This document shows, piece after piece, positions 5,191 through 29,533 of a stretch of 64,000 nucleotides of DNA. This DNA is from Flavobacterium sp. N502536 (lineage in GTDB: Bacteria; Bacteroidota; Bacteroidia; Flavobacteriales; Flavobacteriaceae), in NCBI RefSeq assembly GCF_025947345.1, contig NZ_CP110011.1:4650001-4714000 (forward strand), given 5' to 3'. The notes under the pieces were generated by a model. It searched no databases, was not told the DNA's origin, and worked only from the letters and a program-made list of their open reading frames with translations. Position numbers and translations under genes: made by a program. Every line of letters begins with the position of its first letter. Within the stretch, counting starts at the first letter, position 1.

Positions 5191-5300
5191 TTATACAAGG
5201 CTAAAATACAAAAAAAGCCAATACTCATAACATTGACATTTGTTGATTACTTTATCGGTTTTAGCATTGCGAAACAAAAGACTATTTGGGTATTAAATTC
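5191..5300. repeat. Left boundary of duplicated unit, copy A
   Basis: About 110 bases match 17386-17495 without indels (constant offset 12195) and with only a handful of substitutions, for example the shared block AGCCAATACTCATAACATTG. The match stops sharply at the shared ...GGGTATTAAATTC. It marks the left end of each tandem unit and shows that the duplicated segment began here. Confidence 0.9.
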
Positions 5301-5375
5301 TAGATATTACATTTTTTTTCATTGTCTCATTTGATTCGTCAAGATATAGCAGAAATATTTTAAGCTTATTAGGAA

Positions 5376-5420
5376 TAAAAAAAAGAAGAGACGACCAACA
5401 TGTCGTCTCTTCTTTTTTTT
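5376..5420. terminator. Hairpin terminator
   Basis: The stem AAGAAGAGACGAC / GTCGTCTCTTCTT has a 6-base loop and is flanked by A-run and T-run, so it would work in both directions. No gene ends next to it. It may be the trailer of a lost gene at the end of the duplicated cassette. Confidence 0.75.
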
Positions 5421-5601
5421 AAAATTTACAATTTCATATCCTTTTTTAAGTGGTTGTATCTCTATTTTGTAAAAACACCTAAATAAGAAACAATACCAAT
5501 CTGGTACATTATCAATTCTTCAAGACATTTCTAAAGAATTAACAATAACAATCCTATACAAATTATAACACATGTGATATAGCGATTCTGCAGTTTATAT
5601 C

Positions 5602-5620
5602 TTCAGTTTCATAAACTGAA
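5602..5620. promoter_or_regulatory. Candidate operator TTCAGTTT-CAT-AAACTGAA
   Basis: This is a perfect 8-base inverted repeat with a 3-base centre. It ends 5 bases before the ATG at 5626 that would start the full-length HTH gene. The position and symmetry suggest an autoregulatory site for the XRE-type regulator that follows. Confidence 0.45.
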
Positions 5621-5666
5621 AAAAGATGAAACTAAATCCAGAAAATTAATCTTCGACCTAAAAGGT

Positions 5667-5888
5667 TTGGAGTTGCTTGCAAAACGACTAAAAGAAATAC
5701 ACTCTGAAAAGGATATATCTCAGGAAGAACTGGCTTATCGTTCTGAAATAACGTTATCTCAAATTGCTAGAATTGAGACTGTCAAAATAAATCCAACTGT
5801 TAGTACAATATTAAAAATCGCCAGAGCCTTAGAAGTTCAACCTAGCGAATTATTTAATTTTGAATTACCTCCAGTCAAAAATGAATAA
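5667..5888 (+). CDS. XRE-family helix-turn-helix regulator
   Basis: A 73-residue protein that is almost all HTH domain: RLKEIHSEKDISQEELAYRSEI, then LSQIARIETVKINPTVSTILKIARAL. The frame as given starts at a TTG with no ribosome site. An ATG at 5626 (MKLNPE...) would read into this frame if the A-run at 5642-5645 had one more base, giving about 87 residues and a start just after the palindrome at 5602-5620. I consider that start more natural, but it needs the sequence corrected. It is a DNA-binding protein of the small Cro/CI type, convergent with the toxin cassette. Whether it regulates the cassette is not known. Confidence 0.8.
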   Translation: MELLAKRLKEIHSEKDISQEELAYRSEITLSQIARIETVKINPTVSTILKIARALEVQPSELFNFELPPVKNE

Positions 5889-5907
5889 GTAAAAAAATAT
5901 TAAAACT

Positions 5908-5937
5908 AAAAAGCCATTCATAAAGAATGGCTTTTTC
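5908..5937. terminator. Bidirectional hairpin terminator
   Basis: The stem AAAAAGCCATTC / GAATGGCTTTTT with loop ATAAA lies between the convergent HTH gene and the lipoprotein at the end of cassette A. Its A-run and T-run allow termination on both strands. Confidence 0.85.
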
Positions 5938-5986
5938 AATCATTTTGTAATTAAAAATATAAAAAAGTTCAAAATACTTTTAAAAT

Positions 5987-6480
5987 TTATATTCCTTGAA
6001 TTATTTTAAAATCATCAATCTCAATTTTATTAGATTCAGGGTCAAACATTTTAACTTTAATACTACGATTTTTTAAAATTAAATAATTATCATATTCCTT
6101 TACAAATTTATTATCATTGTTTTTTTTATGGTATTTGATTGAAATCACCGCTAATCCATAACCTTCACTGTCCAATTTAATATTTTTGTCTGTTATTAAA
6201 CTTTGCCATAGCATAGATTTATTTGTGTGTCTCAAAACAAGCCCATTTTCAATGTTAAATTTGTTAATATCTGTAAAATCAATTTTACTATTTTCAATTG
6301 ATAAAGGATAAAATTCCAAATATCTTATAGAGCCTGTTGAATTAGGAGTAAATCGAATAATTCCATACCCCTCATAGATCTCTAGTAAGTCTATTAAGTT
6401 AATGACTTCTTTTGAATCTTTTTTATTCGAACATCCTATCAGTAACATACTGATTGTTATAAAAAAATAGCTAGTCTCAT
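5987..6480 (-). CDS. Small lipoprotein, candidate immunity protein of cassette A
   Basis: From the ATG complement 6478-6480 the frame reads MRLAIFF. If the A-run at 6461-6467 had one more base it would continue ITISMLLIGCSNKKDS, an ideal lipoprotein signal with lipobox LIGC. The rest runs without a break to the stop at 5987, about 164 residues, with no family I recognise. In the sequence as given this part is fused to the toxin frame, which I take to be an artefact of the shortened run. It starts inside the toxin's 3' end, and this tight overlap is typical of toxin-immunity pairs. Immunity is an inference from position. Confidence 0.6.
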
Positions 6481-9214
6481 AATCCTGTTTTAATTTCCTA
6501 TCTGCCTGTAAAGTTCCTATCACTCTATCAGTACTAGGTTTAGCTCTTGTAAGTGCATGTTGCAACCATGCTCTATATTGAGTTTTATTAAGATTCGTAT
6601 AACTTGCATCTCCCATTACATTCTTTTCGTATCCCTTATGAGGGAAAGTTATTTGATTCTCAGAAAGTACTCTGTGGTCTCCTCTATAATCAGTATATCT
6701 ATCACTCAAGCCCAGAAGGTGCAATGTTTCATGAAATACCGTATTATTATCTTTACCACTATCAAATACTGTCCCAGTGTTACCAGCTAAAAACATATAA
6801 CGTCCAGCTTTATTTCTTTGTTCGCCAGCATTAACATGAGAAATATTATCATCATCTTCTGGAGCAGAATCAAAGCTTAAAATATTTTCACCGCTTTTCA
6901 AATTCTTCTCGTTTTTACTTTCATCATATTTATATGTCATGGTAACTCCAATAGTTATACCGTCAACAATTTTAGATTGTAAATTTTTCTTAGCAAATGA
7001 ATTTAACTCTCCCGCTCTTTTTTTATTTGCACCTTGTCCTTGAATATAAATAGTCCCACTAATATTTATTCCTGTAATATTTCCTTTTTTATCTCTAACA
7101 ATATCTATAAGATAGTCCTTTCCATCAAAATCGGCATATCCCATTGGGTCGTTATTAACATAGGCATATGGTGATTCACTAATAAACTTTTCAGCCAATG
7201 GGTCAATGTTCATCCAGCGACCAAGTGCCGGGTCATAATTTCTCGCTCCATAATCATACATGTTAAGCCCCAGCTCGTCTTGAAGCTCCTTTCCGTTGTA
7301 CTTATAATTATTACTATTATCTACATAATCATTATATCCCTTGTGTTTCAATCCAAAAGGATAATAATTATTTTCTTCAATAATTTCAAGAACCTGAGTC
7401 ACCGAATTTTTAGCATAACTCAATCTTATGTTCCCCAAATGGTCTTTGTATTGGTACACATATTTTTGATGTATGTTATCATAATAGCCTTCTGCTGTAG
7501 GGAAAAATTGCAACGTTGGTTGTGATGGAACCTGCTGACTTGCCAACGCACTACTACGACTATTCTCCACTGGCGGATCGGTTGGAGCAGGATCCTCACC
7601 ATCAACAGGAGGGTCCGTATCTCCCGGATCATCCGGTACATGACCGTCACTAATAACATAACTGTACTGAAAACCTCCCAAATAATCCGTATGAGTAGTA
7701 CCGCTTGCCTCTTTTACAATTTTCCCCAGTTTCTGCCCCGTTGCATTGTAAATATACTCAATCGTCTCACTTGTTCCAAATGTAATTATCTTGGGTAAAT
7801 TCAGCTGATTGTACAATATTTCAGTAATATTTTTGTTTTCGTCTTTAATTAAATTTCCATTTAAATCGTAGGCATAATCATCTGCCGAATCATTATAACC
7901 GTTACTATCGTCTTTAAATCCCTGCGGTTGGTTAGAGGTATCTGTTACTTTCATCAATCGATTGGAATTAGCAGTGTAAAAATATCCCAGATTATCCATA
8001 TCTCCAACATAAGGATTGGTTAGTACACCAGCCATATGTTGTCGCTGTAGTCTAATAATATTTCCATTTTTATCATAATCCATATTTTCACCAAAGTAAT
8101 TTTTATTATCGGCTAAATCTGGAGTCTGATAAGTCGCCTCCGACAAACGATTCAATTGATCGTATTGATAACCATATGAACGCTTGGCCGGATCAGCATT
8201 AGTTTTCCAATAGGTTTCTGAAATATTTCCATTATAAAGTGCTTTTGCATAGTTAGCATTTGCTTCCACTTTGTCATAATTAATCTTAAAGGCAAACAGA
8301 TCTATCGGGTCTGTATTTTGCTGTAAACTTGCAACATTGTTGATTCCGGTCAACCAGCCTCTGATGTTGTAACTATAGTGTACTTTCTGCAAAGGGTTTG
8401 ATGAGTTGTTACCCACTAGTTTAGTACTCAATTGTCCGAGATCATCATAGGTATTGTAGGCCAGAACCTCTACTAGTCCACCATTGACCTGATGGGTATG
8501 GGCCAGCAAACGATCCTGGGGTGAATAGGTATATCCCTCACTTATGATCAGTTCTGAATCTCCGGACGTGCGTTTGTGCATGGTGTCTGTATAAAGCGAT
8601 TTTCCGGTAAAATCTAAACTACTGTCGGTGTTGGTATAACCGCCTAAATAATTTTGTAGTCGTGTACTCACTGCTCTGGCTCTGCTATCGTAAAAGGTAC
8701 TGGTGATTTCTCCAAATGTTTCGGATGCCATAGTCAGCGCTCTTGTCCAGCTTCCGGTAAGCAAACCTTTAACATTGTCTAAAACCAACTGCCCCCCGGC
8801 AACTGTAGGTTTGACAGCTGCACCGGGATAATTATAATCGTCATAATAGGTAACAGTTAAAAGTTTAAAATTTATGGGAGCAATAGTGTTGCTATAGTAT
8901 ACTGGGATATTGTCTATCGTTCCAGAGGTTTGTTTGGTTTCAAACAAAACAGTAGCGCTATTTTGTTCGTCCTGCAATGTTTTTCTTATGGTTGAACCTA
9001 CGGGTTGACCATTCCATCCGGTATAAATGGGTCTGCTAAAGGCATCGTATTTAGTAATGTGCCAACCTTCGGTCGTTTCGTCTTTAAAAGGCGAAAAAAC
9101 CGGTCCGGTAGCTACTACCCGATCGAGTTTATCGTAGACAATAAATTCCATTGTTTCCCAGGCAGCTTTTTCTCGACCAAACGATTGCGCTGGTCGTATT
9201 TGTACTGGTAACAT
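5987..9214 (-). CDS. Rhs/YD-core protein with C-terminal zinc-metalloprotease tip (copy A, main part)
   Basis: Contains Rhs YD repeats (YDQLNRLSEATY, YDKNGNIIRL, YDLNGNLIKDENKN), a proline-rich linker, and the Rhs core YQYKDHLGNIRLSY...NPALGRW-like DPALGRWMNIDPLAEKF. The tip has HETLHLLGLSDRY (HExxHxxGxxD zinc site) and NVMGDA (Met-turn), so it is probably a secreted metalloprotease effector. It belongs with 9426-10067: a base missing near 9148-9149 (TGGAA versus TGGGAA in copy B) and another near 9468 break the frame. Another shortened run at 6461-6467 fuses the following lipoprotein. After correction the gene would be 10067-6423, about 1215 residues. The first residues of the listed frame, up to about 9150, are out of frame and not real. 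Confidence 0.8.
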   Translation of the reverse strand: MLPVQIRPAQSFGREKAAWETMEFIVYDKLDRVVATGPVFSPFKDETTEGWHITKYDAFSRPIYTGWNGQPVGSTIRKTLQDEQNSATVLFETKQTSGTIDNIPVYYSNTIAPINFKLLTVTYYDDYNYPGAAVKPTVAGGQLVLDNVKGLLTGSWTRALTMASETFGEITSTFYDSRARAVSTRLQNYLGGYTNTDSSLDFTGKSLYTDTMHKRTSGDSELIISEGYTYSPQDRLLAHTHQVNGGLVEVLAYNTYDDLGQLSTKLVGNNSSNPLQKVHYSYNIRGWLTGINNVASLQQNTDPIDLFAFKINYDKVEANANYAKALYNGNISETYWKTNADPAKRSYGYQYDQLNRLSEATYQTPDLADNKNYFGENMDYDKNGNIIRLQRQHMAGVLTNPYVGDMDNLGYFYTANSNRLMKVTDTSNQPQGFKDDSNGYNDSADDYAYDLNGNLIKDENKNITEILYNQLNLPKIITFGTSETIEYIYNATGQKLGKIVKEASGTTHTDYLGGFQYSYVISDGHVPDDPGDTDPPVDGEDPAPTDPPVENSRSSALASQQVPSQPTLQFFPTAEGYYDNIHQKYVYQYKDHLGNIRLSYAKNSVTQVLEIIEENNYYPFGLKHKGYNDYVDNSNNYKYNGKELQDELGLNMYDYGARNYDPALGRWMNIDPLAEKFISESPYAYVNNDPMGYADFDGKDYLIDIVRDKKGNITGINISGTIYIQGQGANKKRAGELNSFAKKNLQSKIVDGITIGVTMTYKYDESKNEKNLKSGENILSFDSAPEDDDNISHVNAGEQRNKAGRYMFLAGNTGTVFDSGKDNNTVFHETLHLLGLSDRYTDYRGDHRVLSENQITFPHKGYEKNVMGDASYTNLNKTQYRAWLQHALTRAKPSTDRVIGTLQADRKLKQDYETSYFFITISMLLIGCSNKKDSKEVINLIDLLEIYEGYGIIRFTPNSTGSIRYLEFYPLSIENSKIDFTDINKFNIENGLVLRHTNKSMLWQSLITDKNIKLDSEGYGLAVISIKYHKKNNDNKFVKEYDNYLILKNRSIKVKMFDPESNKIEIDDFKIIQGI

Positions 9215-10124: not shown

Positions 10125-11864
10125 TTAATTCTCTTCTTCTCCCGGGTTCAAACAATATCCCTCACTATTAGCATAATTTTGTCCATTTGCTCCCGAATCC
10201 ATCACAGCCTTGTTTGTTGCATCAGCCTCTGAAATAAAGGATTTGTATGTTCCATATGGTATATGATAATAAACTGTGGATCCTCTCATACCAGGAGGGC
10301 AATTGTTTTTATAATATATATCATTAATCTCCAAACTATAAAAAGTGCATTTTCCGGCTGAATTAGCATAATTCTGTCCATATCTATTAATTTCATCAAG
10401 AGCCCGATCATCAGCTGTCCCTTGAGAAGTATTGGAATTGTATGTTCCCGCGGAAACAGTATACCAAACACTTTCAGGAGTACCACCAGCAGCACAGTTG
10501 TTACGGGCGATTAATCTACTTTGGGCAGAATTCCAAAAAATACATTTTGCATTATTATTGTCGTTTGCATAGGCCTGACCATTGGCAGTGATATCATTTT
10601 GCGCCTTTATATCTGCTGCTTCCTGCGACACATCAGAACTATAACGTCCTGCAGGAACACTATAAGTTACACTTTCCGGAGTTCCTCCGGCAGCACAGTT
10701 GTTTCTGGTAAACACAGCACTTTTTGCAGTATTGGCAAAAATGCATTTTGCATTATTATTATCATTTGCATAGGCCTGACCATTGCTATTAAATAAAGCT
10801 AGTCCTTTTGAATCAGCATCAGCTTGTGAATCCGTTGAAGTCTTGGCTCCTGCAACCTGACTAAAGAAAACAATTGATCCAACACCACCAGAAGCACAAT
10901 TATTTCTTGTAAACCAACCACTAAGGGCAACACTATTAAAAGTACAAGAGCCATTAGTATTAGCATAGACCTCCCCCCTTGTATTGAATAAGCGAAGTCC
11001 TTCTGAATCAGCATCTGCCTGCGAAATTATTGAAGTCTTCGCTCCTGCTACCTGACTAAAAGGCACACTCGAACCAACACCACCAGCAGGACAATTATTT
11101 TTAGTAAATGAACCATTTAGAGCAATACTCTTGAAAGTACATTTACCATTAGCATTGGCATTAGCCAGTCCATTAGCATTGACTTCATCTCGCGCCAGAT
11201 TGTCTGCAGCAGCCTGAGAACTATAAGAATCATACCTTCCTGCAGGAACTGTATACACAACAGCCTCAGGAATTCCGCCTACAGCACAGTTGCTTCTTGT
11301 AAATGACCCACTTTGGGCTGTATTCCAAAATCTACATCTACCATTAGCATTGGCATTAACCAGTCCATTGGCGTTGACTTCATCTCGCGCCAGATTGTCT
11401 GCAGCAGCCTGAGAACTATAAGAATCATACCTTCCTGCGGGAACTGTATACACAACAGTCTCAGGTACTCCGCCTACAGCACAGTTGCTTCTTGTAAATG
11501 ACCCGCTTTGGGCTGTATTCCAAAATCTACATCTACCATTAGCATTGGCATAGGCATATCCGTTTATATTGACATCATTCTGGGCCTGAGTATCAGCTTC
11601 AGCCTGAGAATTATCAGAACTGTAAATTCCTGCTGCAACAGTATACAAAACACTTTCGGGTGTTCCACCGGCAGCACAATTATTTCTCGTAAACAAACCA
11701 CTTTTGGCAGTATTTTTAAAAACACACTTAACAGCAGCGTTATTGTCTGCATAAGCCTGTCCATCTGTATTGAATTTAGCAAGTCCCAAATCGTCTGCAT
11801 CTGCCTGTGAAATGGTCGAGGTATAGGCTCCCGCCGGCTGACTGTAACTTACACTTTGTCCCAT
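10125..11864 (-). CDS. DUF5977-repeat region of YD protein (copy A, C-terminal part)
   Basis: 579 residues made of nine tandem repeats of about 65 residues. Each carries a SQADADxxAxxxxNxxGQxYAN block and a C-x(n)-SGSFTRNNCAAGG block, with two conserved cysteines per repeat. This is the DUF5977 module. The frame is the continuation of the 11849-15283 gene. The run of five C at 11865-11869 needs a sixth to join ...NCPAGG to MGQSVSYSQPAGAY, as in copy B. The listed ATG is therefore probably internal. Cysteine-rich repeats suggest an extracellular stalk, which is inference. The whole gene would be 15283-10125, about 1719 residues. Confidence 0.82.
   Translation of the reverse strand: MGQSVSYSQPAGAYTSTISQADADDLGLAKFNTDGQAYADNNAAVKCVFKNTAKSGLFTRNNCAAGGTPESVLYTVAAGIYSSDNSQAEADTQAQNDVNINGYAYANANGRCRFWNTAQSGSFTRSNCAVGGVPETVVYTVPAGRYDSYSSQAAADNLARDEVNANGLVNANANGRCRFWNTAQSGSFTRSNCAVGGIPEAVVYTVPAGRYDSYSSQAAADNLARDEVNANGLANANANGKCTFKSIALNGSFTKNNCPAGGVGSSVPFSQVAGAKTSIISQADADSEGLRLFNTRGEVYANTNGSCTFNSVALSGWFTRNNCASGGVGSIVFFSQVAGAKTSTDSQADADSKGLALFNSNGQAYANDNNNAKCIFANTAKSAVFTRNNCAAGGTPESVTYSVPAGRYSSDVSQEAADIKAQNDITANGQAYANDNNNAKCIFWNSAQSRLIARNNCAAGGTPESVWYTVSAGTYNSNTSQGTADDRALDEINRYGQNYANSAGKCTFYSLEINDIYYKNNCPPGMRGSTVYYHIPYGTYKSFISEADATNKAVMDSGANGQNYANSEGYCLNPGEEEN
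10140..11850. repeat. DUF5977 repeat array, about 195 bp units, copy A
   Basis: Nine units. The two neighbouring units covering about 11140-11530 are almost identical in DNA (for example TCGCGCCAGATTGTCTGCAG occurs in both). This indicates recent unit duplication or conversion within the gene. The units alternate between two flavours, ...TVPAGRYDSYSSQ and ...SQVAGAKTSTDSQ. Confidence 0.85.
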
Positions 11865-14800
11865 CCCCCGGCAGGACAGTTCTTTTTAGTAAACGACCCG
11901 CTTCTTGCTGCACTTTTATAGATGTACTCACTAGTTGAAGTATTATTACTGCAATCGGTCTGCTGTCCCTTATAATTATAACAGTATTTTTGAAGTACAT
12001 TTAATTCATAATCCTTTACAAATTTTAACCTGCCAGAGGAATCATATTCATAATAAGAAGGTACTCCTTTTGGATCTGTTATACTTGTTACACCAACTAA
12101 GGGATTATAAGTATAAGTGGTAATAAAAGCATTTGGAAATGCAGCTCGAAATGCATTTAAATCATTTCTTAGTAATTGTTCCGTACAATTTCCTGACATA
12201 CAGTTATCATTGTCGGCATTTGAAAGACTCTGCAAGTTTGCAATGGTTCCTACCGGAATTGCGTTGTAAGCAACATTTTCAATTTTAGCAATAGGCAATG
12301 TTTTATTGTACCCCCAGATGATCGAAACGGGAATTCCGTTTTCGACCGTATACTGTAAAACGTTACCTTTTTCATCGTATTGGTTATAGGTAATTTTCTT
12401 TTCGAGATTCCCTATATTGCTCAATGAAGGTAACGAATTGGGAAATTTTGCCCCATAAATTTCTTTAGGCTGCAGCAAATTACCCGTTAAGGCATCCTTC
12501 GCAAATACTATTTTATCTTTTGAAAAAAGCGTTCCTGATTTGTACTTCTCCGTAATTATTGGTGTACTGATTCTGTTAGCTGTTTTTAATTCAGCCATAA
12601 AGGGCTCACTCAATAAATCATCAGGATAAAAGTATTTTGTTTCTATGGTTTCTTCATTAGAGTTTTTAGTGATCTGCGAGGTCAATTGTGCACTTCCCGG
12701 ATTGTCATACTTAAATTCTTCTTCTGTTTTTAAAACCTTTCCATTAAAATATTCCTCCGTCGTTTTTTTATCCATATAATACCAGGCCGATATAAGTCTC
12801 GAGTTGGTGTACTGGTATAGGTTATAAAAATTTGGACTGCGTCTAAAGACACTTAGAGCGATACTCCTTTTATAAAACTCGTTTGGAGCTGTAGCATTTA
12901 CTAAAGGAAAACCAGGATCATTAACGGAACTTTTATTCCCGGGAGCTGTTTCGCTAAAATGATACGAAAAAGTCGTTTTTCTGGCGATATCGTTTTTATT
13001 ATATTCATTAATAAGCAAAGGCAAACCTCGTTTCCAATTGTATGAAATTTTAGAAAAATGCGAATCTTCACCATACCTCAGGTCATCATAAAAAGTAAAG
13101 TACTTTTCAACTTTAATCGCTTTGGAAATATCATTATTATCTATATTCTTTTCAGTTACTTTCTGATAGAAAACATGATAACCGTTAAATCCAAATATAT
13201 CTGAGGGAATTCTGGAATACTGAACAGCAAATTCCTGCACGCCTTTATTAATATTATTATCTTCCGGATTCGTAATTTCTGCAAAATAAGAATAGGTTCC
13301 GTAATAATAGGGTACTTCATACAATATACCTGAAGACTTGCCATCGATACTGTAATCAAAAAAACGACGAGTAGCCACATTTCCCGACTCTTTTGTCTCT
13401 ATGCTTTTAATTCGTAACCCTCCCACTGAAGTGATCGGTTCCTGAACTGTGGTGCCCATTAGATAACTAATTGTTATAAATTTGTTCGAATTTTCCATGG
13501 TATCATAGCATTTTAAACTAAGTATATACGTTTTACCTCTCTGCAAAGGCTCTCCAACATAGGGTTTAAAATTTATTCCTACTGTACCTATGGCTTCAAA
13601 ATTCATAAGACGCGCTTGCCCGTTACTCAATTCATGCAATTCTGCTATTGCATAATTTGAAGTTGTAGCTTCCCCTGGGCTAATTAAATCAAACTGAACA
13701 TAGGGTATACCTGTCATTCTTTCCGAAATTGTGATTGTATCAGTCACTGTGATCCATTCGCCGGTGGGCACCTTCTCAGAGTTAGCAAATGCTTTTAAGA
13801 CAGGTTCCCAATTATAGGTTGTATAAGAAAGATCACTGTCAGAACAGGTATTAAGTTCATAACTAAAATCTACTTCTCCTTTCGTTGGAAGAACGATATT
13901 TTTTAAAATATTGGTCTGGGTGTATGCTAAACTTGGAGCCTTGGAGCCTCCTAAGTCATTAAAAAGGGTATTCATGGTGTATCTTGAGCAGTTACCACTA
14001 AAATATCCCCAATGGTCCAAGCATGATGAATTTCTATCTAAGGCCATTTCGTTGTTATAAGAAAAAACATATGGATTCTCCCCCGTCTTTTGAAAACTTT
14101 TTAATTTCAGTCGGTATGTTGTATTTTCATTTGAAATGATAGATTCAAAAAGATCCGGATTGTACTGATTATCAGGAGTACCAAAATAGCCATAATCAAA
14201 CTGGTAGGTTTCTATTTCATTTTTATAATTAACTGTAATTTTATCGAGTGTCTTAGGAGCCGTAGCCTGAGCTTTACCTTTTATATCTTTTCGATATTTA
14301 CTGTATAAAAAATTGATTTCGTAATCCTGATTGACTTTGATTTTGGTTAAAACTTTAGTAGTGATTTCTGAATAGTAAGAGGTAATTTTTTCTCCTCCTC
14401 CAAAAATCCAATGATAATATCTGGTATAGTCTTTATCGTTCTCCAGATTGTATTGGACTGTATCATAAACAAAATCTACTGTTTCATTATTAGGTGTTAT
14501 AATCTGAACTAAATAATAGGTATAAGAATTACTTCGTGAAGTTCCGGCTAGGGCCTGAAATGCGTAACAAATACTACTTACGAGATTTAAATTTTCTGTT
14601 CTTATATTGTAAATGTACCTCACACCATCTGTATCTGTAATTTCAAAATTATTGGTACTGCTGTTAAAAGCTATTTTTTCTTTCCCAAAAGGAATCTGTT
14701 TGGTTTCGAAATTGTTCCCAAAGAAAAATTTACCAGACTTATTGGGTATTGAATAGTAAAATACATCGGGTTGTGTTTCTAAATTGTATGCATCTATATT

Positions 14801-15283: not shown

Positions 15284-15293
15284 CTTCCTAAAT

Positions 15294-17495: not shown

Positions 17496-17544
17496 CCCAC
17501 TCTGCTAAGTGTTCTCAATTATGCAAGAACTCTGTTCACGCTGT

Positions 17545-17685: not shown

Positions 17686-17761
17686 GCAACTTTTCAATTG
17701 AACTCTTCGGAGAGCGGAGGGTTTTAAAATCTAAATAATCATTATTTAAAACTCTAAAATA

Positions 17762-18340
17762 TTAATCATCTGGCAAGCATTCGTATTTTCTTAATTTCAA
17801 AATCTCGTTACTAATTTTTTTTATCCATTGATTTTGATTGATATTATTCCCAAATACCTCATTATCATACAGTTTATTTAAATCATGACTTTTCACAATA
17901 TTAGAGTTATATATTGAAGTATAATTTTCCTCGTTATAATTTTTTCTCATTCTTAAACTGTCAAAAGATTTCCTAATTTTCCTAGCATACAGTTCTGTAA
18001 TATCAAAATGCAATTGCTCATGAGCTAAAAGCTGAATGCTATTTGTTATAGTCCACGATTTACTTTTTATGAAAATAGATTGTAATTTATAATTAGTAAT
18101 CATATTTTTTGTAGTGCTATACTCGAATTTTATTGTTGAAGTAGTTCCTGCTACAGTTAATGAGTCAGTTCGGTCAGGAATCCCTTTAAAATCTTCCCAA
18201 GTCAGCTTTCTGTTTTTAGACCATAAAATTTCATCCTTTTCGTCATTAAACTTTTTGCCTACAGAAAAGCTTGTCATTGAACAACAGACAATAATAATCA
18301 ACGGCACTATTAATATTATTCTTTTTATTTTTACTTCCAT
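17762..18340 (-). CDS. Exported DUF922-like (Zn-protease-like) protein, last gene of cassette B
   Basis: 192 residues. A hydrophobic N terminus (MEVKIKRIILIVPLIIIVCC) is a signal or membrane anchor. LTWEDFKGIPD and LLAHEQLHFDITELYARKIR resemble DUF922, predicted secreted zinc-dependent proteases, with HExxH (HEQLH) visible. It begins 11 bases after the Rhs gene stop and holds the place where copy A has its lipoprotein. By position it could be an immunity or accessory protein; by sequence it could itself be a protease. I cannot decide between these. Confidence 0.72.
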   Translation of the reverse strand: MEVKIKRIILIVPLIIIVCCSMTSFSVGKKFNDEKDEILWSKNRKLTWEDFKGIPDRTDSLTVAGTTSTIKFEYSTTKNMITNYKLQSIFIKSKSWTITNSIQLLAHEQLHFDITELYARKIRKSFDSLRMRKNYNEENYTSIYNSNIVKSHDLNKLYDNEVFGNNINQNQWIKKISNEILKLRKYECLPDD

Positions 18341-18351
18341 TTTTAAATCTT

Positions 18352-22053: not shown

Positions 22054-24975
22054 TTAGCGATTGTCATGCGTACAGGTTCCATGAGTATTGGCGTAATTTT
22101 TTCCATTTTGTCTTAAATCATTAAATGCCTTAAGATTAGCATCCTTTTGACTAATTGTAGAAAAATATATATGAGCGGGAACCGTATACGTCTCAGTTGA
22201 TCCAATAAATCCAATTCCGCAATTGTCTCTGGTAAAATCTTCACTTGTTTGTGCATTGTAAAATCCGCATTCCCCTCTTGCATTGGCGTAATTCTGCCCG
22301 TTTTGAGCAACATCCTCCTGGGCTTTTATATCGGCTTCAGCCTGTGATGATTCTGACCAATGAATACCGGCAGCAACAGTATACGTTACAGGAGCGCCCC
22401 ATTGACCCGCAGGGCAATTATTTTTTGTAAAAATGCCGCTTTTGGCTGTATTGTAAAAACGACAGGCCCCACTAGTATTGACATTGATTCGACCCAATAC
22501 ATCACACTTTTTAGCTGCCCGATCATCTGCATCAAATTGTGACTCCCTCGACGTAACTTCTCTCGCTGGTATTGTATAATCTAAAGAAGTCCCTACACTG
22601 CCTGAAGGGCAATTATTTTTAGTATAGGATCTGGTAATCGCTACATTCCAAAATGTACAATAGCCCTTTGAATTAGCATTTTCCAGACCGTTATTATTAA
22701 CATCTCTTTGCGCCAAATCATCTGCAGCCACTTGCGACTCTCTTGAGAAATGACTTCCAGCGGGAACGGTATAGACTTCCGTTGAACCTACTCCACCCGG
22801 TGCACAATTATTTTTAGTAAACGAACCACTTTTTTCAGTATTGGTGAAAGTACAATACCCTTCTGTATTTGCATTGGCCCTACCATTTGAATTAAATAAA
22901 GCCAATCCTTTTGAATCAGCATCAGCCTGTGAATCTTTTGAGGTTTCGGCACCTGCAACCTGACTAAAGAATTCGTCTGAACCAACACCACCAACAGGAC
23001 AATTATTTTTGGTAAATGAACCACTTAGAGCGATACTGCTATAGGTACACTCTCCTTTACTATTGGCATTGGCCTGACCATTTGTATTGAATAAAGTCAG
23101 TCCTTTTGAATCTGCATGAGCCTGTGAATCATTTGAAGTCTCGGCACCTGCAACCTGATTAAAAGGGACACTTGATCCTACTCCTCCAGCAGCGCAATTA
23201 TTTTTGGCAAATGAACCACTTAGGGCTATGCTTTTGAATGTACAATACCCATTAGCATCGGCATTGATCTGACCGTTTGTGTTGAATAAGGCCAATCCTT
23301 TTGAATCGGCATCAGCCTGCGAAATGGTCGAAGTATAGGCCCCTGCCACCTGACTATAAGTAAAACTCTGACCTGTTCCTCCGGCAGGACAATTACTTTT
23401 GGTAAACAATCCGCTTCTTGCTGCACTTTTATAGATGTACTCACTGGTTGAAGTATTATCGCTACAATCAGTCTGTTTCCCCTTATAATTATAACAGTAT
23501 TTTTGAAGTACATTTAATTCATAATCCTTTACAAATTTTAATCTGCCAAAGGAGTCATATTCATAGTAAGAAGGTATTCCTTTTGGATCTGTTACACTTG
23601 TTACGCCAATCAATGGATTATAAGTATAGGAAGAAATAAAAGCGTTTGGCAATGAACTTCTAAATGTCCTTAGACCTTCTCTCAGTTTTTGTTCTGTACA
23701 ATTATCTGACAAACAATTATCGATATCAGCGTTAGAGAGTGTTTGTAAATTTGTTATTGTTGCTGACGGAATCAGGTTATACACAACATTTTCGATTTTG
23801 GCAATAGGCTGTGTTTTATTATATCCCCAAATAATAGATACCGGTATACCACTCTCTAAAGTATATTGTAAAATATTTCCTTTGTCATCATACTGATCAT
23901 ACGTCATTTTTTTATCTAGACTTAAATCAATAGAAGATCCTCCTTTATTTGCGTAAACAGATCTTGGCAACAATAAATTACCTGTCGCTGCACTTTTGTC
24001 ATAAACTGTCTTTTGTTCTGATAATTTAACCCCTTGTTTAAAAACTTGTGTATCCAAAACTTTTCCAATCATATTCTTAGCCATTAACTCATTTCTAAAT
24101 GGTTCTGATGCCATATCAGAGTCTGAAGGATAAAAGTATTTGGTCTCAATAGTGGCCTTGGTATCTGTTACCTCTTGTTTAGAAATTGTAACGGTTTGTG
24201 AACTTAATTTTAAATGAGACGGATTGTTGTACTTATAGGTCGTTATTGTAGTTACAGGATTTGAACCCTGTACATCATATTGAGTGTTTGATTCAGATTC
24301 CAGATAAAACCAGTACGAATTGGTCGTATACTTATTGATATTCAAATGTTCAATATTTCTATAGTTTGGACTAGTGAAATGATATAATGCATTGTATTTG
24401 ATCTCAGTAGCCACTCCAGGAATTTTGCGCGTATATTGATCCTCCAGTTTATATTGGTTTTCAACTATGTTTAAATTATCTAAATTCTTATTGAAAATCC
24501 TTTTTATATGTAACAAACCATTTTTCCAGCTCAGATTGGTCCAGGGAGCAGAGGTCAGATAACTGTCAAGGCACAGATAAGGAGGGATATCCGCAGAGAT
24601 ATAGTACTGAAATTCTTCACCTCCATTTTCAAAATTTGTCCCTCCATGACTCACCGTTACATATTCATAAGTGGTGGAATTGTTTCCCATTGATCGGTAC
24701 AAAGGATAAATACTGTTGGCATTAATATTCATGAATGTAGCCCGTGTCTCTACATTCCAATAATTTGGAAGGCCTGTATTTTTGTCACAAAATGCCCTCT
24801 GTTCAGTAAAGTTTATCAAGTTTATCGGAATTCCTTCTACACCGGTTGACGTAAAACGACTTTCTTTTTTACCATAATAATAGTGTTTAACATCAGTACT
24901 GTTAGATGCAGTATCGAAACTGGTAATTTTTGCAATTCTTAATCCTGCCACAGGAATGTTAGCTTTAGATTCCAC
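22054..24975 (-). CDS. YD/DUF5977-repeat protein, C-terminal part (copy B)
   Basis: 973 residues as read. It continues the 25179-26705 frame after a one-base loss near 25281-25292; the real coding sequence upstream of the listed ATG reads EQKTEEFVFESKADHETE through to VESKANIPVAGLRIAK. It contains YD-type motifs (YDQYDDKGNILQYTLESGIPVSIIWGYNK, YEYDSFGRLKFVKDYELN) and seven DUF5977 repeats with paired cysteines, ending CTHDNR. It has no T9SS sorting domain. The region from about 23440 to 23900 closely matches copy A, while the earlier part is only distantly related. The full gene would be 26705-22054, about 1550 residues. Confidence 0.82.
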   Translation of the reverse strand: MESKANIPVAGLRIAKITSFDTASNSTDVKHYYYGKKESRFTSTGVEGIPINLINFTEQRAFCDKNTGLPNYWNVETRATFMNINANSIYPLYRSMGNNSTTYEYVTVSHGGTNFENGGEEFQYYISADIPPYLCLDSYLTSAPWTNLSWKNGLLHIKRIFNKNLDNLNIVENQYKLEDQYTRKIPGVATEIKYNALYHFTSPNYRNIEHLNINKYTTNSYWFYLESESNTQYDVQGSNPVTTITTYKYNNPSHLKLSSQTVTISKQEVTDTKATIETKYFYPSDSDMASEPFRNELMAKNMIGKVLDTQVFKQGVKLSEQKTVYDKSAATGNLLLPRSVYANKGGSSIDLSLDKKMTYDQYDDKGNILQYTLESGIPVSIIWGYNKTQPIAKIENVVYNLIPSATITNLQTLSNADIDNCLSDNCTEQKLREGLRTFRSSLPNAFISSYTYNPLIGVTSVTDPKGIPSYYEYDSFGRLKFVKDYELNVLQKYCYNYKGKQTDCSDNTSTSEYIYKSAARSGLFTKSNCPAGGTGQSFTYSQVAGAYTSTISQADADSKGLALFNTNGQINADANGYCTFKSIALSGSFAKNNCAAGGVGSSVPFNQVAGAETSNDSQAHADSKGLTLFNTNGQANANSKGECTYSSIALSGSFTKNNCPVGGVGSDEFFSQVAGAETSKDSQADADSKGLALFNSNGRANANTEGYCTFTNTEKSGSFTKNNCAPGGVGSTEVYTVPAGSHFSRESQVAADDLAQRDVNNNGLENANSKGYCTFWNVAITRSYTKNNCPSGSVGTSLDYTIPAREVTSRESQFDADDRAAKKCDVLGRINVNTSGACRFYNTAKSGIFTKNNCPAGQWGAPVTYTVAAGIHWSESSQAEADIKAQEDVAQNGQNYANARGECGFYNAQTSEDFTRDNCGIGFIGSTETYTVPAHIYFSTISQKDANLKAFNDLRQNGKNYANTHGTCTHDNR
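22060..23400. repeat. DUF5977 repeat array, copy B
   Basis: Seven units of about 195 bases. Three neighbouring units of the SQVAGAETSxDSQADADSKG type are very alike in DNA, and the terminal units are more diverged. Unit number (seven versus nine) and order differ from copy A. Confidence 0.82.
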
Positions 24976-25178
24976 TCCGCCGCCTTTACAATAAGTAAAA
25001 TTTACATTTCCTGTGGTTTTAGCATCAGGAGAGAATGTAACAGATATTTTATAACTATTGTTTTTAAGAAACGTATAGGGTATTTTTTTAGGTTTATTGT
25101 GCTCATCAGCAGTAATAGGAAAAGAACTAAGCAGTGGGTTTGTTAAATTTTCAACTTTAAAAGTAAGCCATAATTCTC

Positions 25179-26705
25179 CTACCGGAAATGTACCCTCTGT
25201 GAATTCATAATCATTATAGAAAACTCTTGCCAGTATTTCGGTCTCGTGATCTGCTTTACTTTCAAAGACAAATTCTTCAGTTTTTTGCTCCCGATTATAA
25301 TCCGGTTATAAAACGGGATATTTTTCGGTTCAATTTCACAGGAACTTATGACAGTTCCCCATACAGAATTAGCTTCGTATTCAAAATCATTGTAGCCTTT
25401 AGTAGGGTATACGACTCTTTTTAATATTCCCTTTTTAGCAAAGTCCATATAAGGGCGTTTATCTCCATATGATCTCCCACTAAGCCCATTTTTTACAAGA
25501 TCAGTTTGTGGATAAAGACTTTTATGAATAACAGCATCAGGATAAGTACCTGGCTTACCGTTATAGTATCCCCACAAGTCTCTCTGATCAGATAAGCGGG
25601 CAACCAGACCTTTAGGATCTTCATATTCAAAACCATACTTCTTTGAAGCATCCTTAAAAATACATTCTGTTAGAAAAATCCTTTTATCGGCTGTAAAAAG
25701 ATACTTAAAATCAGCTTTTTCAATTACATTTAGTTGTCCTGCATCAAAGACCTGAATCCCTTCTATTAAAAAGTTCCCCGTCACGTTCGGATTTCCCGTC
25801 AGTTGAAAAGACACGCTGCCATACTGAGATTCAGTACTACTGATGCTTTCTATTATTTTCCCCATAACATTTAAGTGGTTTTCACTACGATTTGTTCGAC
25901 CTCGAAAAGGATTGCTTAAACAATTTAGCTCTTCACTCATCTTTATTTCAAATGACTCACTAATATTAGAAATAAAACTATAGTTTGAATCTTTATAAGT
26001 AAAATTAACTATATCTCCTTCGGGATGAATGATCTTAGTCAGATACCATCCCGTAGCAACAGTCTGTGGAGCTTCTACATTTCCCCAGGTACTATACTCG
26101 GTATTGGTAAATTGATACTCAACTCCATCCTCCGTTGTTATCTTAAAACCGGATATAACACTGGTTCCCAGTTTTTCAATTTTTAAATTATTCTGCGAAA
26201 CTAATACTGCTTTACCACTATTGTCAAAAACAAACTGTCCGGATTGTCCCTGAAAATTATAGGAATACATATCGGGCTGTGTATCACTAAACTGGTTATT
26301 CTCTATGTAGGTAAAGAAACTGTCTGTACAATGCATATCTTCAGAAATGGGAACTATTCGTTCATCATCATCCTTCCCCCTCACTATTCGATTGATAATT
26401 CCTCCGGTATTCAGATTCCATCCTAATCCAACATTCGTTTCCATTTGATCTACCTGTATACCGTTTGAATTATAGTTCAAACTAATAGGAATTGCTATAT
26501 TTTTAGTTTTATAAGTATATATAGGCACACTTATATTTGGAGTCCCTGTAAAAGTTCCAACATCGGCCTGTCCGTATCTACCCAATTCATAAGCTGTAGG
26601 CGAGGGTGGTATAATTTGTGGCACTGACTGAGCATTACCTTGTGCAAACACTTCGAGTGAAAAGAGCAAAAAAAACAGACCGCTTTTTATTTTTAAATTG
26701 TACAT
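25179..26705 (-). CDS. YD-repeat cell-surface protein, N-terminal part (copy B)
   Basis: 508 residues as read. Signal peptide MYNLKIKSGLFFLLFSLEVFAQG, then IIPPSPTAYELGRYGQADVGTFTGTP, ISVPIYTYKTKNIAIPISLNYNSNGIQVDQMETNVGLGWNLN and GGIINRIVRGKDDD. These are the N-terminal features of Bacteroidota YD/Rhs surface proteins, but of a different subtype from copy A. It stops early because one base is missing in the T-run 25281-25286 or the C-run 25290-25292; the next frame continues without a stop. It starts 12 bases after the propeller gene, so the operon order equals that in copy A. Confidence 0.82.
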   Translation of the reverse strand: MYNLKIKSGLFFLLFSLEVFAQGNAQSVPQIIPPSPTAYELGRYGQADVGTFTGTPNISVPIYTYKTKNIAIPISLNYNSNGIQVDQMETNVGLGWNLNTGGIINRIVRGKDDDERIVPISEDMHCTDSFFTYIENNQFSDTQPDMYSYNFQGQSGQFVFDNSGKAVLVSQNNLKIEKLGTSVISGFKITTEDGVEYQFTNTEYSTWGNVEAPQTVATGWYLTKIIHPEGDIVNFTYKDSNYSFISNISESFEIKMSEELNCLSNPFRGRTNRSENHLNVMGKIIESISSTESQYGSVSFQLTGNPNVTGNFLIEGIQVFDAGQLNVIEKADFKYLFTADKRIFLTECIFKDASKKYGFEYEDPKGLVARLSDQRDLWGYYNGKPGTYPDAVIHKSLYPQTDLVKNGLSGRSYGDKRPYMDFAKKGILKRVVYPTKGYNDFEYEANSVWGTVISSCEIEPKNIPFYNRIIIGSKKLKNLSLKVKQITRPKYWQEFSIMIMNSQRVHFR

Positions 26706-26717
26706 TTTTACTTTAAC

Positions 26718-28382
26718 TTATTTTATTGATTTAATCACTTTTACTGACTCGGTTTTGACATCTGTTCTGATTTTAATGATATAGATTCCTTCAGAATAGT
26801 TGCTCAGATTAACCAGTACAGTTCTGTTGTTGATATCAAACTCTTGTAAAGTACGTCCGCTGATGTCTATCAAAGAGGCGGTACCTTCTTTAAAATCATA
26901 ACCAATAATGATGTTGGTGTAAGTTGATGCAGGATTTGGAATGGCTTCGATACTGGCTTTTACTTTTTCAACCTTTGTTTTGTCTTTTAATTTTACTACC
27001 CAAAAATCATTGCCTCCAATGCTGCCGTTTCGGTCTCTTGATGCAGCTGAGTTCGAGGTTCCTGCCATCAGATAGCCTCCATCTCTGGTCTCGATTAACT
27101 TTCTGAGAATATCTTCTCCGGCGCTGCCTACAGTTTTGTTCCAGATTTCTTCTCCTTTGTCATCTATTTTCATGGCGATGTAGTCATTGATACCTTCTTT
27201 TTCTTTGCTGACGGAGTTAAGTGCTTTGGCTACGATCCCTTCACGCGGGCGTCTGCTTTCACTTTGTGCATAACCGCCAATGAGGTAACTTTGATCTTTG
27301 TTTTCTACCAGAGAAGTCAGGATGTCAACCTTTCCAAAATCATAGGTTTTACTCCATAAAACACCACCGTCCTTATCCAGTTTAAGAATCCAGTAGTCAG
27401 TTCCATTGCCTACAATTCCTCCCATAGTTGTCAAAGCATTTTTACTATTGGAATTTCCTCCTGCAATATAACCACCATCGATGGTTTGGTGGATAACATA
27501 AGGTTGATCGTCACCCTCAGCACCATAGGTACTTTGCCATTGAATTTCACCGGTATCCGTTATTTTGATGATCCAAAAATCTCCTACTCCTTTATTGTTC
27601 TCTGTTTTATCCCCTGAAACCGGAGAGTTAGAATAACCCGCCAAAATATAGCCATTGTCTGAGGTTTGTTCCATGCTTCTCAGTACGTCCGCATAAGCTC
27701 CTCCATAAGTCTTTTGCCACTCGACATCGCCTTGTTTGTCCAGTTTGACAATCCAATAGTCCATATTACCACGGCTTTTTTCTGATTTGTTAAACTGATC
27801 TGCTTTTGTGGTTGGTTTGGAAATTCCGTTTGGTACAGCAAGTGCATTACCCGAAGGATCTGAACTCGATGAGCCTCCTAACATATAACCTCCGTCTTTG
27901 GTTTGAAAAGCACATAAAAGTTCGTCCTTCCCTGCACCTCCAATCGTTCTTTGCCATTGTTCACTGCCTGAAGCATCTAATTTTATCACCCAAAAATCAG
28001 TGATTCCTTTGCAATTTTCCTTTTTTTGAAAGCCTCTCCCTGAACTTGAAGTTCCTGCAAGAATAAATCCGCCATCTCTGGTATTTTTAATACTCTGAAG
28101 CAAATCAAACCCCCTTCCTCCAATGCTTTTCTGCCAGACCAGATCTCCTTTTTCACTCATTTTCCAGATCCAGTAATCGAGATCCCCATGATTATCGTCG
28201 TCTTTGTTTCCGGTTTTGTTAGACAAGGAACTGCCCGCCAGAATAAAGCCATAATCGGCCGTGGGTTGGGCGTCAAACAGGTAATCGGCATGCTGTCCAC
28301 CATATGATTTTTCCCAGAGAATGTCCTGGGAATAGGTAAAAATGGGTAACAATAATAAAAGTAACAGGTAATTTTTTTTCAT
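26718..28382 (-). CDS. Secreted seven-repeat propeller protein with T9SS type A sorting domain (copy B)
   Basis: 554 residues, the same length as copy A and differing by about a dozen residues (for example AVPNG for AAANG, TYGAEG for TYGGEG). Signal peptide MKKNYLLLLLLLPIFTYSQ, seven W(E/Q)KxxGG...GGxxLAGxS repeats and a C-terminal sorting domain (NPASTYTNIIIGYDF...GIYIIKI). The near identity contrasts with the divergence of the next gene, pointing to conversion or purifying selection on this gene. It is the first gene downstream of metNIQ and has its own promoter. Confidence 0.92.
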   Translation of the reverse strand: MKKNYLLLLLLLPIFTYSQDILWEKSYGGQHADYLFDAQPTADYGFILAGSSLSNKTGNKDDDNHGDLDYWIWKMSEKGDLVWQKSIGGRGFDLLQSIKNTRDGGFILAGTSSSGRGFQKKENCKGITDFWVIKLDASGSEQWQRTIGGAGKDELLCAFQTKDGGYMLGGSSSSDPSGNALAVPNGISKPTTKADQFNKSEKSRGNMDYWIVKLDKQGDVEWQKTYGGAYADVLRSMEQTSDNGYILAGYSNSPVSGDKTENNKGVGDFWIIKITDTGEIQWQSTYGAEGDDQPYVIHQTIDGGYIAGGNSNSKNALTTMGGIVGNGTDYWILKLDKDGGVLWSKTYDFGKVDILTSLVENKDQSYLIGGYAQSESRRPREGIVAKALNSVSKEKEGINDYIAMKIDDKGEEIWNKTVGSAGEDILRKLIETRDGGYLMAGTSNSAASRDRNGSIGGNDFWVVKLKDKTKVEKVKASIEAIPNPASTYTNIIIGYDFKEGTASLIDISGRTLQEFDINNRTVLVNLSNYSEGIYIIKIRTDVKTESVKVIKSIK

Positions 28383-28425
28383 AAAATATTCTGGTTTAAT
28401 CTCTTGAGGAATTAAATTATGAGGC

Positions 28426-28433
28426 CAAAACTA
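28426..28433 (-). promoter_or_regulatory. -7 element TAGTTTTG of cassette B
   Basis: On the minus strand it fits TAnnTTTG and lies about 44 bases before the propeller gene, as in copy A. The 332-base gap 28383-28714 otherwise holds only this and the metQ terminator. Confidence 0.5.
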
Positions 28434-28640
28434 ATACACTATCTTCTATTTCTTTTACGGCTTTCCACAATAGACCAACTTTTAGTCAAAAATTTAACAA
28501 TTAAAATAAAAAACCAACAGAAAAACCGATATAAGACTAAAAAACACGGATATATTCCTAATAAAAATAAGCTTTACCAGAAGATTGACTTTTGAATAAA
28601 TACGAAAAGCAAAAACTCCTTTACTAAAATTCTTAATCCA

Positions 28641-28676
28641 AAAAAAATGCGCAACGATCCTTGATCATTGCGCATT
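28641..28676 (-). terminator. Terminator of metNIQ
   Basis: On the minus strand the stem AATGCGCAATGATC / GATCGTTGCGCATT has one wobble pair and is followed by seven T. It lies 39 bases after the metQ stop and separates the met operon from the cassette. Confidence 0.85.
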
Positions 28677-28714
28677 ATAAAACTTCTACCCTATGTCGGA
28701 TTTAAAGAAAGTAA

Positions 28715-29533
28715 CTACCAGCCCTTTACCGCTCCGCCTTTAAACTCGCGAACAGCGGCCTGTTCTACTTCAGCAGATTGGAAAGCCTGTACAAATTGTT
28801 TTATTTTTTCTTCTTTTTTATTGTCATCACGGCTTACGATTAAGTTGACGTAAGGAGAATCTTTATCTTCTACAAATAGGGCATCACGAGCCGGAACCAA
28901 TCCTGCCTGCGAAGCAAAAGTATTATTGATAATCGCAATGGCAACATTCTGATCGTCTAAAGCACGTGGCAATTGTGGCGCTTCCAATTCTAATATTTTC
29001 AGGTTCTTCGGATTCTCCGTGATATCCGTCACTTTAGGCAATAAACCTACATTCGGACGAAGTTTCAATAATCCGTTTTTCTCCAAAAGCAACAAAGAAC
29101 GACCTCCGTTTGTCGGGTCATTCGGAATAATAATGGTGCTTTCATTTTTCAATTCCGCAAGACTTTTGATCTTTTTAGAATAAGCCGCAATTGGATAAAT
29201 AAAGGTCTTTGCAATAATGGCCAGTTTGTATCCGCGTTGTTTCGATTGCTCGTCCAGATAAGGTTTGTGCTGAAAAGCATTAACATCAATATCTCCCTGA
29301 CTCAAAGCTTCATTTGGAATCACATAATCGTTAAAAGAAACCAGTTCTACTTCAAGACCGTATTTGTCTTTGGCAACTTTTTGGGCAGCTTGTGCTACCA
29401 CATATTCCGGACCGGCCGCTACACCAACTTTAATATGGTGTGGGTCGTTAGTTTTACTTTTTCCGCAATTGGTCACAACAATTGATAATGCCACAATTCC
29501 GGCTGTTTTTAAAAAATTTATCTTCGTAATCAT
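28715..29533 (-). CDS. metQ: Methionine ABC transporter substrate-binding lipoprotein
   Basis: 272 residues. Signal peptide with lipobox VVTNC (Cys near residue 23) so it is tethered to the outer face of the inner membrane. NlpA/MetQ motifs include HIKVGVAAGPEYVV, NAFQHKPYLD, TIIIPNDPTNGGRSLLLLEKNGLL and SPYVNLIVSRDDN. It binds methionine and delivers it to MetI. It is the last gene of metN-metI-metQ, 80 bases after metI. Its last 30 codons are repeated at 17294-17386. Confidence 0.95.
   Translation of the reverse strand: MITKINFLKTAGIVALSIVVTNCGKSKTNDPHHIKVGVAAGPEYVVAQAAQKVAKDKYGLEVELVSFNDYVIPNEALSQGDIDVNAFQHKPYLDEQSKQRGYKLAIIAKTFIYPIAAYSKKIKSLAELKNESTIIIPNDPTNGGRSLLLLEKNGLLKLRPNVGLLPKVTDITENPKNLKILELEAPQLPRALDDQNVAIAIINNTFASQAGLVPARDALFVEDKDSPYVNLIVSRDDNKKEEKIKQFVQAFQSAEVEQAAVREFKGGAVKGW

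What the first reader, a model, noticed from the sequence alone, without database searches (positions are those of the whole stretch)
5191..28807. Tandem duplication of a whole T9SS/YD-repeat cassette, dated by a metQ relic
The last 30 codons of metQ recur at 17294-17386 and run directly into a 110-base block that also lies at the outer left end (5191-5300). This fixes the unit as left block plus cassette plus metQ 3' end, repeated once in tandem. Seen directly: gene order and near-identical propeller genes. Inference: duplication through short homology in a T-run, followed by diversification of the internal parts. Tandem duplication of a complete multi-gene surface or toxin cassette gives two paralogous systems side by side.
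Basis: seen in the sequence. Interest (0 to 1): 0.85.

Follow-up and report, generated by a model that had tools for sequence, protein, structure and literature searches.

The report
Twin toxin cassettes with swapped parts
A Flavobacterium-type chromosome carries one predicted toxin-type surface gene cassette twice in a row beside metQ; the two copies share a conserved backbone but hold unrelated versions of two large interchangeable parts, which suggests that duplication gave the cell a second slot for a different weapon.

Summary
Confirmed: 5189-17387 and 17384-28808 are tandem copies of one cassette (T9SS-tagged beta-propeller; gene 2, TcB/SpvB-like with DUF5977 repeats; gene 3, DUF6443-Rhs with variable C-terminus), joined by a 94-base metQ relic running into a 112-base block with four Ts of overlap. 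In Flavobacterium tructae the site is empty, and most of the block belongs to that native spacer, so both chromosomal flanks were co-duplicated: duplication in place. But the inside did not simply diversify. Propellers A and B are sisters (98/92), whereas the gene-2 N-half of A groups with F. tructae and that of B with F. azizsancarii (one clade rejected, p-AU 1e-9): whole modules were exchanged. Across related cassettes, of 479 pairs with propellers at least 70% alike, 423 have gene-2 N-parts under 40% alike and 20 at least 60%. F. geliluteum has a second tandem pair with the same mosaic. Relic plus block differ less (11 of 206) than the propeller-metQ spacer (43 of 331), so the junction may be younger than the divergence inside. 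Genes 2 and 3 are frame-broken in both copies (five slips); assembly error is not excluded.

The parts
28715..29533 (-). metQ (intact frame); its last 94 bases (28715-28808) are the right border of the repeated unit
   Evidence: 96% protein identity in G182, G397 and G419
17294..17387 (-). metQ 3'-end relic between the two cassettes
   Evidence: 4 of 94 differences from 28715-28808
17384..17495 (.). inner copy of the left block, joined to the relic with a 4-T overlap
   Evidence: 93.8% to 5189-5300; letters
5189..5300 (.). outer copy of the left block; up to 5284 it aligns with the native spacer of the empty site
   Evidence: L138 913-1250 against window 5284-4945, 82% over 345 columns, which include the start of the next gene
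15294..16958 (-). copy A gene 1: SBBP-type beta-propeller with T9SS type A sorting domain
   Evidence: TIGR04183, PF18962
11849..15283 (-). copy A gene 2, N-terminal piece with YD hinge; frame lost near its 3' end
   Evidence: 86% to the uninterrupted F. tructae gene
10125..11864 (-). copy A gene 2, C-terminal piece: DUF5977 repeats (9 stretches)
   Evidence: PF19404
9426..10067 (-). copy A gene 3, N-terminal piece with signal-peptide-like start (by eye) and DUF6443; a short middle stretch, about 9.16-9.43 kb, lies in a third frame
   Evidence: PF20041
5987..9214 (-). copy A gene 3, C-terminal piece: Rhs core, zincin-like C-terminal region running on into a lipoprotein-like segment
   Evidence: TIGR03696; motifs read by eye
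26718..28382 (-). copy B gene 1: propeller with T9SS sorting domain, 97% protein identity to copy A
25179..26705 (-). copy B gene 2, N-terminal piece with SpvB domain; different type from copy A
   Evidence: PF03534; 24% to copy A; type of F. azizsancarii
22054..24975 (-). copy B gene 2, C-terminal piece: YD hinge and DUF5977 repeats (7 stretches)
18352..21855 (-). copy B gene 3: DUF6443, Rhs core, weak OmpA-like C-terminus; cut off from its signal-peptide-like start by a frame break
17762..18340 (-). copy B neighbour gene, sub-threshold DUF922 match, HExxH by eye; candidate immunity or accessory gene
   Evidence: PF06037 at 20.9 bits, cut-off 27
12408..15268 (-). exchangeable module 1 in copy A (most of the gene-2 N-terminal piece)
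   Evidence: no DNA match to copy B; incongruent trees
23921..26694 (-). exchangeable module 1 in copy B
   Evidence: no DNA match to copy A; collinear with L032 over 23298-28384 at 75.5%
5301..7244 (.). exchangeable module 2 in copy A (Rhs C-terminus and downstream DNA with a small HTH-like frame at 5667-5888 +)
   Evidence: no match to copy B
17496..19165 (.). exchangeable module 2 in copy B (Rhs C-terminus, 192-aa gene, dispersed repeat at about 17615-17724)
   Evidence: no match to copy A

Best explanation
A three-gene polymorphic-toxin-type cassette sits between metQ and its native downstream spacer. The cassette, with the last 94 bases of metQ and about 110 bases of the spacer, was duplicated in tandem through a four-T junction (shown by sequence). 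Two long modules differ in origin between the copies: the N-half of gene 2 (shown by incongruent trees) and the Rhs C-terminus with the DNA downstream of it (shown as no match; donors unknown). They were exchanged as blocks, most likely by recombination in the conserved anchors: propeller end, gene-2 hinge, Rhs core (inferred). From the propeller through gene 2, copy A goes with the F. tructae cassette; copy B holds the foreign gene-2 N-half. Probable working (inferred): gene 1 is exported by the T9SS to the cell surface, genes 2 and 3 form a BC/Rhs-like shell with a toxic tip, and a duplicated locus lets one slot change its weapon while the other keeps its own tip and immunity, as modelled for rhs in Salmonella.
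For: Diagonals and junction. Empty site in F. tructae L138, with the block belonging to that spacer. Propeller A+B sisters 98/92; gene-2 N as one clade rejected, lnL difference 617, p-AU 1e-9. Copy A collinear with F. tructae over 11138-17087 at 85%; copy B with F. azizsancarii over 23298-28384 at 75.5%. Gene-2 N-parts fall into discrete types: of 479 pairs, 423 under 40% and 20 at least 60% alike. A second tandem pair with the same mosaic in F. geliluteum. Same gene-2 type but different C-terminus in 7 of 7 usable pairs. Precedent: rhs duplication with recombination, PMC3967940 (passages).
Against: No single-copy state at this site was seen whole; the UGB4466 contig ends 1.1 kb into gene 2. 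All four genes 2 and 3 here are frame-broken, so present function is unproven. No immunity activity and no export of gene 3 is shown; no sorting domain was listed for gene 2 or 3. The C-terminal pieces found no relative in the held loci. The gene-2 tree carries long-branch warnings. The F. tructae spacer also resembles the metQ-side terminator of the window, so the exact insertion point is uncertain.
Confidence: 0.75

Rival explanations
1. Old duplication whose ends (propeller, spacer, relic, block) were kept alike by gene conversion between the copies, while the modules inside were replaced. It differs from the favoured reading in timing.
For: In UGB4466 the two propellers, at two sites, are closer to each other (dS 0.351) than its metQ-site propeller is to window copy B (0.965). 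G126 has two propellers with 100% identical protein 51 kb apart, with gene 2 at 88.9%.
Against: Relic and block (11 of 206) are less diverged than the spacer between metQ and propeller (43 of 331, Fisher p 0.005); conversion would have to favour the far ends.
Confidence: 0.2
2. Two separate insertions of different cassettes at metQ, each carrying its own metQ end.
For: Cassettes sit at different sites in close relatives: site X in F. tructae and UGB4466, metQ in UGB4466 and the window.
Against: The repeated block is mostly native spacer of the metQ site, and propellers A and B are sisters. No integrase was listed among the ten cassette proteins and no tRNA in the window.
Confidence: 0.08
3. 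Pure duplication followed by mutation of the inner parts.
For: Gene order and shared ends.
Against: Gene-2 N-halves 24-25% alike beside 97% propellers, each with closer relatives in other species.
Confidence: 0.03
4. Assembly misjoin of two unlinked cassettes.
For: Frame breaks in four of six cassette genes and in 2 of 28 mapped genes outside show that this assembly may hold indel errors.
Against: One-contig genome in which only these two propellers were matched; the copies are diverged enough to be told apart by an assembler (inference); F. geliluteum shows the same arrangement in another assembly.
Confidence: 0.05

Closest known systems
Rhs polymorphic toxins and rhs locus duplication in Salmonella (PMC3967940; passages seen)
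   Same: Rhs core with exchangeable C-terminus; duplication proposed as the step that keeps old immunity while a new tip is taken
   Different: There the exchange concerns a tip and the duplication may revert; here the whole three-gene unit is present twice in an assembled genome, and a second large module, the gene-2 N-half, differs too
TcdB/TcaC-type (SpvB) route of polymorphic toxins (PMC3482391; passages seen)
   Same: SpvB-domain and Rhs proteins, listed for Bacteroidetes
   Different: Here the propeller is a separate gene with a T9SS sorting domain, and gene 2 ends in DUF5977 repeats
TANFOR polymorphic toxins of Bacteroidetes (PMC7073777; passages seen)
   Same: Toxin genes beside T9SS substrates in Flavobacterium and others
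   Different: No TANFOR family was listed for the ten cassette proteins (E up to 0.01)
Recombination between tandem T7SS immunity paralogues (PMC9484751; abstract and outline seen)
   Same: Conserved blocks in tandem paralogues serve as recombination anchors
   Different: Immunity genes in Firmicutes, not whole toxin cassettes
Rhs gene with SpvB and TcdB signatures and displaced tips in Ornithobacterium hominis (PMC6421346; passages seen)
   Same: Same protein classes in a related family member, variable C-termini
   Different: No tandem copy of a whole cassette and no separate propeller gene mentioned in the passages seen

Membership tests
Tandem duplication | two parallel diagonals in the same orientation | tested here: met
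Tandem duplication | a junction joining the right end of one unit to the left end of the next | tested here: met
Tandem duplication | single-copy or empty state in relatives | tested here: inconclusive
   empty state seen in F. tructae; single-copy state only in part, because the UGB4466 contig ends
Rhs polymorphic toxin | Rhs-associated core | tested here: met
   TIGR03696 above cut-off in gene 3 of both copies
Rhs polymorphic toxin | conserved core with variable C-terminus | tested here: met
   C-terminus under 35% in 171 of 173 measured pairs, core median 58%
Rhs polymorphic toxin | cognate immunity gene next to the toxin | tested here: inconclusive
   candidates only: 17762-18340 and the lipoprotein-like tail of 5987-9214
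T9SS cargo | C-terminal sorting domain | tested here: met
   met for both propellers; none listed for the gene 2 and gene 3 pieces
Tc toxin B/C pair | SpvB-type B subunit with Rhs-type C subunit | tested here: inconclusive
   SpvB over cut-off in copy B and in 1 of 6 relatives' gene 2 (L032), not in copy A; profile of 36 gene-2 N-parts matches only YenB, E 0.007; gene 3 of copy B finds no solved structure
Tc toxin B/C pair | A subunit partner | not tested
   none listed among the ten cassette proteins; the genome was not searched for one

The most novel reading that the evidence does not exclude
These Flavobacterium cassettes have two separately exchanging specificity modules, the C-terminal tip of gene 3 and the roughly 800-residue N-half of gene 2, which circulate as discrete allelic types over the genus on a conserved propeller/hinge/core frame; tandem duplication then holds two complete combinations in one genome.
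Probability: 0.5. Interest if true: 0.7.

Novelty: new variant of a known kind. Interest (0 to 1): 0.5.

Why it matters
Polymorphic toxins are known for swapping their C-terminal tips. A second, front-end module exchanged in the same way would mean that delivery or targeting is under diversifying exchange as well. A tandem pair with a readable junction shows how a cell can hold two such combinations, and the order of steps (duplication first, exchange second) can be tested with strains of this species.

Tried and rejected
Single-copy state at metQ: I looked downstream of metQ in the 20 best-matching genomes after the own one (of 99 with any match among 398; stretches up to 19.9 kb, two cut short by contig ends). 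Only UGB4466 (G397) has a propeller there. In six of the 20 other genes fill the interval. tRNA genes or Rfam families in the window: none. Relatives of the A and B C-terminal pieces, the lipoprotein-like tail and the 192-aa gene: no tblastn match at E 1e-4 in the held loci, seven loci of the window's own stretch left out. Meaning of the frame breaks: not decided. Five slips in four genes of the cassette stand against 2 split genes of 28 mapped outside (G182 reading frames of 150 aa or more with matches over 60%), while 51 of 55 relatives' cassettes in which both genes were found have gene 2 of at least 900 and gene 3 of at least 950 residues. My own note counted one slip per gene; on re-reading, copy A gene 3 has two. 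Tandem frequency: one search scored at most three candidates per genome and cut its list, so copy numbers are lower bounds. Module counts used 65 cassettes, the two window copies and 63 of the 78 loci; the rest were dropped for a short propeller (500 aa or less), no propeller frame or no gene 2 of at least 440 aa. Core and C-terminus values exist for 173 of the 479 pairs. The pairs are not independent. In one search the core end was found in 35 of 59 gene 3 proteins, 33 cassettes were usable, and the script stopped with an error after the G126 identities; the missing DNA comparison ran. Whether UGB4466 has the same metQ-propeller spacer as the window is unclear (188 of 316 aligned identical).
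Full report
What is there. The window lies at 4650001-4714000 of a 5.05 Mb one-contig genome whose same-genus relatives are, by inference from contig lengths, Flavobacterium. Self-comparison of the first 34 kb shows the claimed tandem: propeller, spacer and metQ end (15269-17387 to 26695-28808, 92.3%), Rhs core and DUF6443 region (7245-10075 to 19166-22013, 82.6%), gene-2 hinge (11794-12407 to 23306-23920, 79.8%) and the left block (5189-5300 to 17384-17495, 93.8%). Relic and block meet with four shared Ts at 17384-17387. Two long stretches have no DNA match in that search: 12408-15268 against 23921-26694, and 5301-7244 against 17496-19165. In the DUF5977 part only repeat units match.

The cassette. 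In reading order, gene 1 is a 554-residue SBBP-type propeller with a T9SS type A sorting domain. Gene 2 has a TcB/SpvB-like N-half, a YD hinge and DUF5977 repeats. Gene 3 is a DUF6443 protein with an Rhs core and a variable C-terminus. Copy A's C-terminus has a zincin-like HExxH motif, read by eye, and its frame runs on into a lipoprotein-like segment. Copy B's matches OmpA below the cut-off and is followed by a 192-residue HExxH protein with a sub-threshold DUF922 match. The SpvB family passes its cut-off in copy B and in F. azizsancarii, but not in copy A nor in five other gene-2 proteins. A profile of 36 gene-2 N-parts finds only YenB, a Tc B subunit, at E 0.007. In F. tructae gene 2 is one reading frame of 1715 and gene 3 of 1219 residues. 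In the window both genes are frame-broken in both copies: gene 2 by one slip each, gene 3 by two in copy A and one in copy B. Since 2 of 28 mapped genes outside are split too, assembly error cannot be excluded; the breaks were only described.

Empty site. In F. tructae (G182, L138) metQ is followed after 0.27 kb by the ortholog of window 4332-5048, and then by those of 2909-4240 and 1558-2907. That spacer and the start of the next gene align with window 5284-4945 at 82%. So the repeated left block is mostly native DNA of the metQ site, and the duplicated unit holds chromosomal flank on both sides. That argues for duplication in place rather than two insertions. The same spacer also resembles the terminator-like DNA beside metQ (28685-28635, 78% over 51 columns), so the exact insertion point is uncertain. 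UGB4466 (G397, L139) has metQ followed by a propeller, but its contig ends 1.1 kb into gene 2. Its second propeller is at another site, X, which F. tructae also uses. In the window genome site X holds about 7 kb of other DNA; in G419 the flanks are 0.75 kb apart. Cassettes thus occupy different sites in close relatives.

Exchange, not drift. The propeller tree puts A and B together (98/92). The gene-2 N tree puts A with F. tructae (100/100) and B with F. azizsancarii (100/97), and rejects A+B as one clade (lnL difference 617, p-AU 1e-9; the tree warns of long branches among other rows). DNA comparison agrees: copy A is collinear with F. tructae over 11138-17087 at 85%, copy B with F. azizsancarii over 23298-28384 at 75.5%. 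Over 65 cassettes, 479 pairs have propellers at least 70% alike. Their first 450 gene-2 residues are under 40% alike in 423, at least 60% in 20 and between in 36. The last 600 residues of the Rhs core are 58% alike at the median, and C-termini are under 35% in 171 of 173 measured pairs. Where the gene-2 type is the same, the C-terminus differs in 7 of 7 usable pairs; one of 521 different-type pairs has a C-terminus at least 50% alike (L034 and L053, 63%). The two modules therefore seem to move separately; this rests on 33 usable cassettes, and five of those seven pairs share two loci (L037, L038).

A second case. F. geliluteum carries two cassettes 13 kb apart with the same mosaic: propeller 94.8%, start of gene 3 91.2%, no match in the gene-2 N-part, C-termini 29% alike. 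G126 has two cassettes 51 kb apart with identical propeller proteins, gene 2 at 88.9% and gene 3 at 84.4%; their DNA match stops before the end of gene 3. Of 398 genomes searched in the genus, 112 hold the propeller at E 1e-100 or better. In the matches listed, whole same-strand copies within 20 kb appear only in the window genome and in F. geliluteum; the list was cut, at most three candidates per genome were scored, and many assemblies are drafts.

Age. The relic differs from metQ at 4 of 94 sites and the block copies at 7 of 112, together 11 of 206. The spacer between metQ and propeller differs at 43 of 331 (Fisher p 0.005). Propeller dS between copies is 0.307, against 0.54-0.78 for window to F. 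tructae in three flanking genes and 0.18-0.29 for F. tructae to UGB4466. The junction may thus be younger than the divergence inside, as expected if one copy received foreign DNA after duplication. Old duplication with converted ends remains a rival. The relic is short and the block may be constrained as a terminator, so this is suggestive only.

Known ground. In Salmonella, rhs recombination with a duplication model has been reported (PMC3967940, passages). SpvB/TcdB-type polymorphic toxins are listed for Bacteroidetes (PMC3482391, passages); T9SS-linked polymorphic toxins are described there too (PMC7073777, passages), and an rhs gene with SpvB and TcdB signatures in Ornithobacterium hominis (PMC6421346, passages). 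A search for DUF6443 found 0 papers and one for DUF5977 found one, which names it among adhesin stalk domains. I saw no description of exchanged gene-2 N-halves in the listings; that is no proof of absence.

Noticed in passing
17615-17724 (inverted arms 17542-17562 and 17668-17688): A dispersed intergenic repeat, matched more than once in each of the 11 genomes searched (list cut). In G312, 15 of the 20 listed non-metQ matches lie in 1.017-1.099 Mb, which also holds two DUF6443 genes; in L188-L193 copies lie among small genes that look like immunity genes by position.
   Followed up: partly
44419-45248 and 45621-48025: Two genes outside the cassette are split between frames compared with orthologs in G182 and G397, hinting at indel errors in the assembly or at decay.
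   Followed up: partly
L201 (G000:C1:4547000-4562000): Site X, where F. tructae and UGB4466 carry a cassette, holds an unrelated insert of about 7 kb in the window genome; one frame looks caspase-like by eye, from recall.
   Followed up: no
L188, L189 (G126): Two cassettes 51 kb apart with identical propeller proteins and diverged genes 2 and 3, suggesting homogenisation of gene 1 within a genome.
   Followed up: partly
5667-5888: Small plus-strand frame (TTG start), helix-turn-helix-like by eye, inside module 2 of copy A.
   Followed up: no
L137, L138, L150, L151, L153: The interval from metQ to the ortholog of window 2909-4240 is about 1.1, 3.9, 15.3, 14.7 and 16.7 kb in L138, L137, L150, L151 and L153 and 24.5 kb in the window, with different contents: a variable region.
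   Followed up: partly
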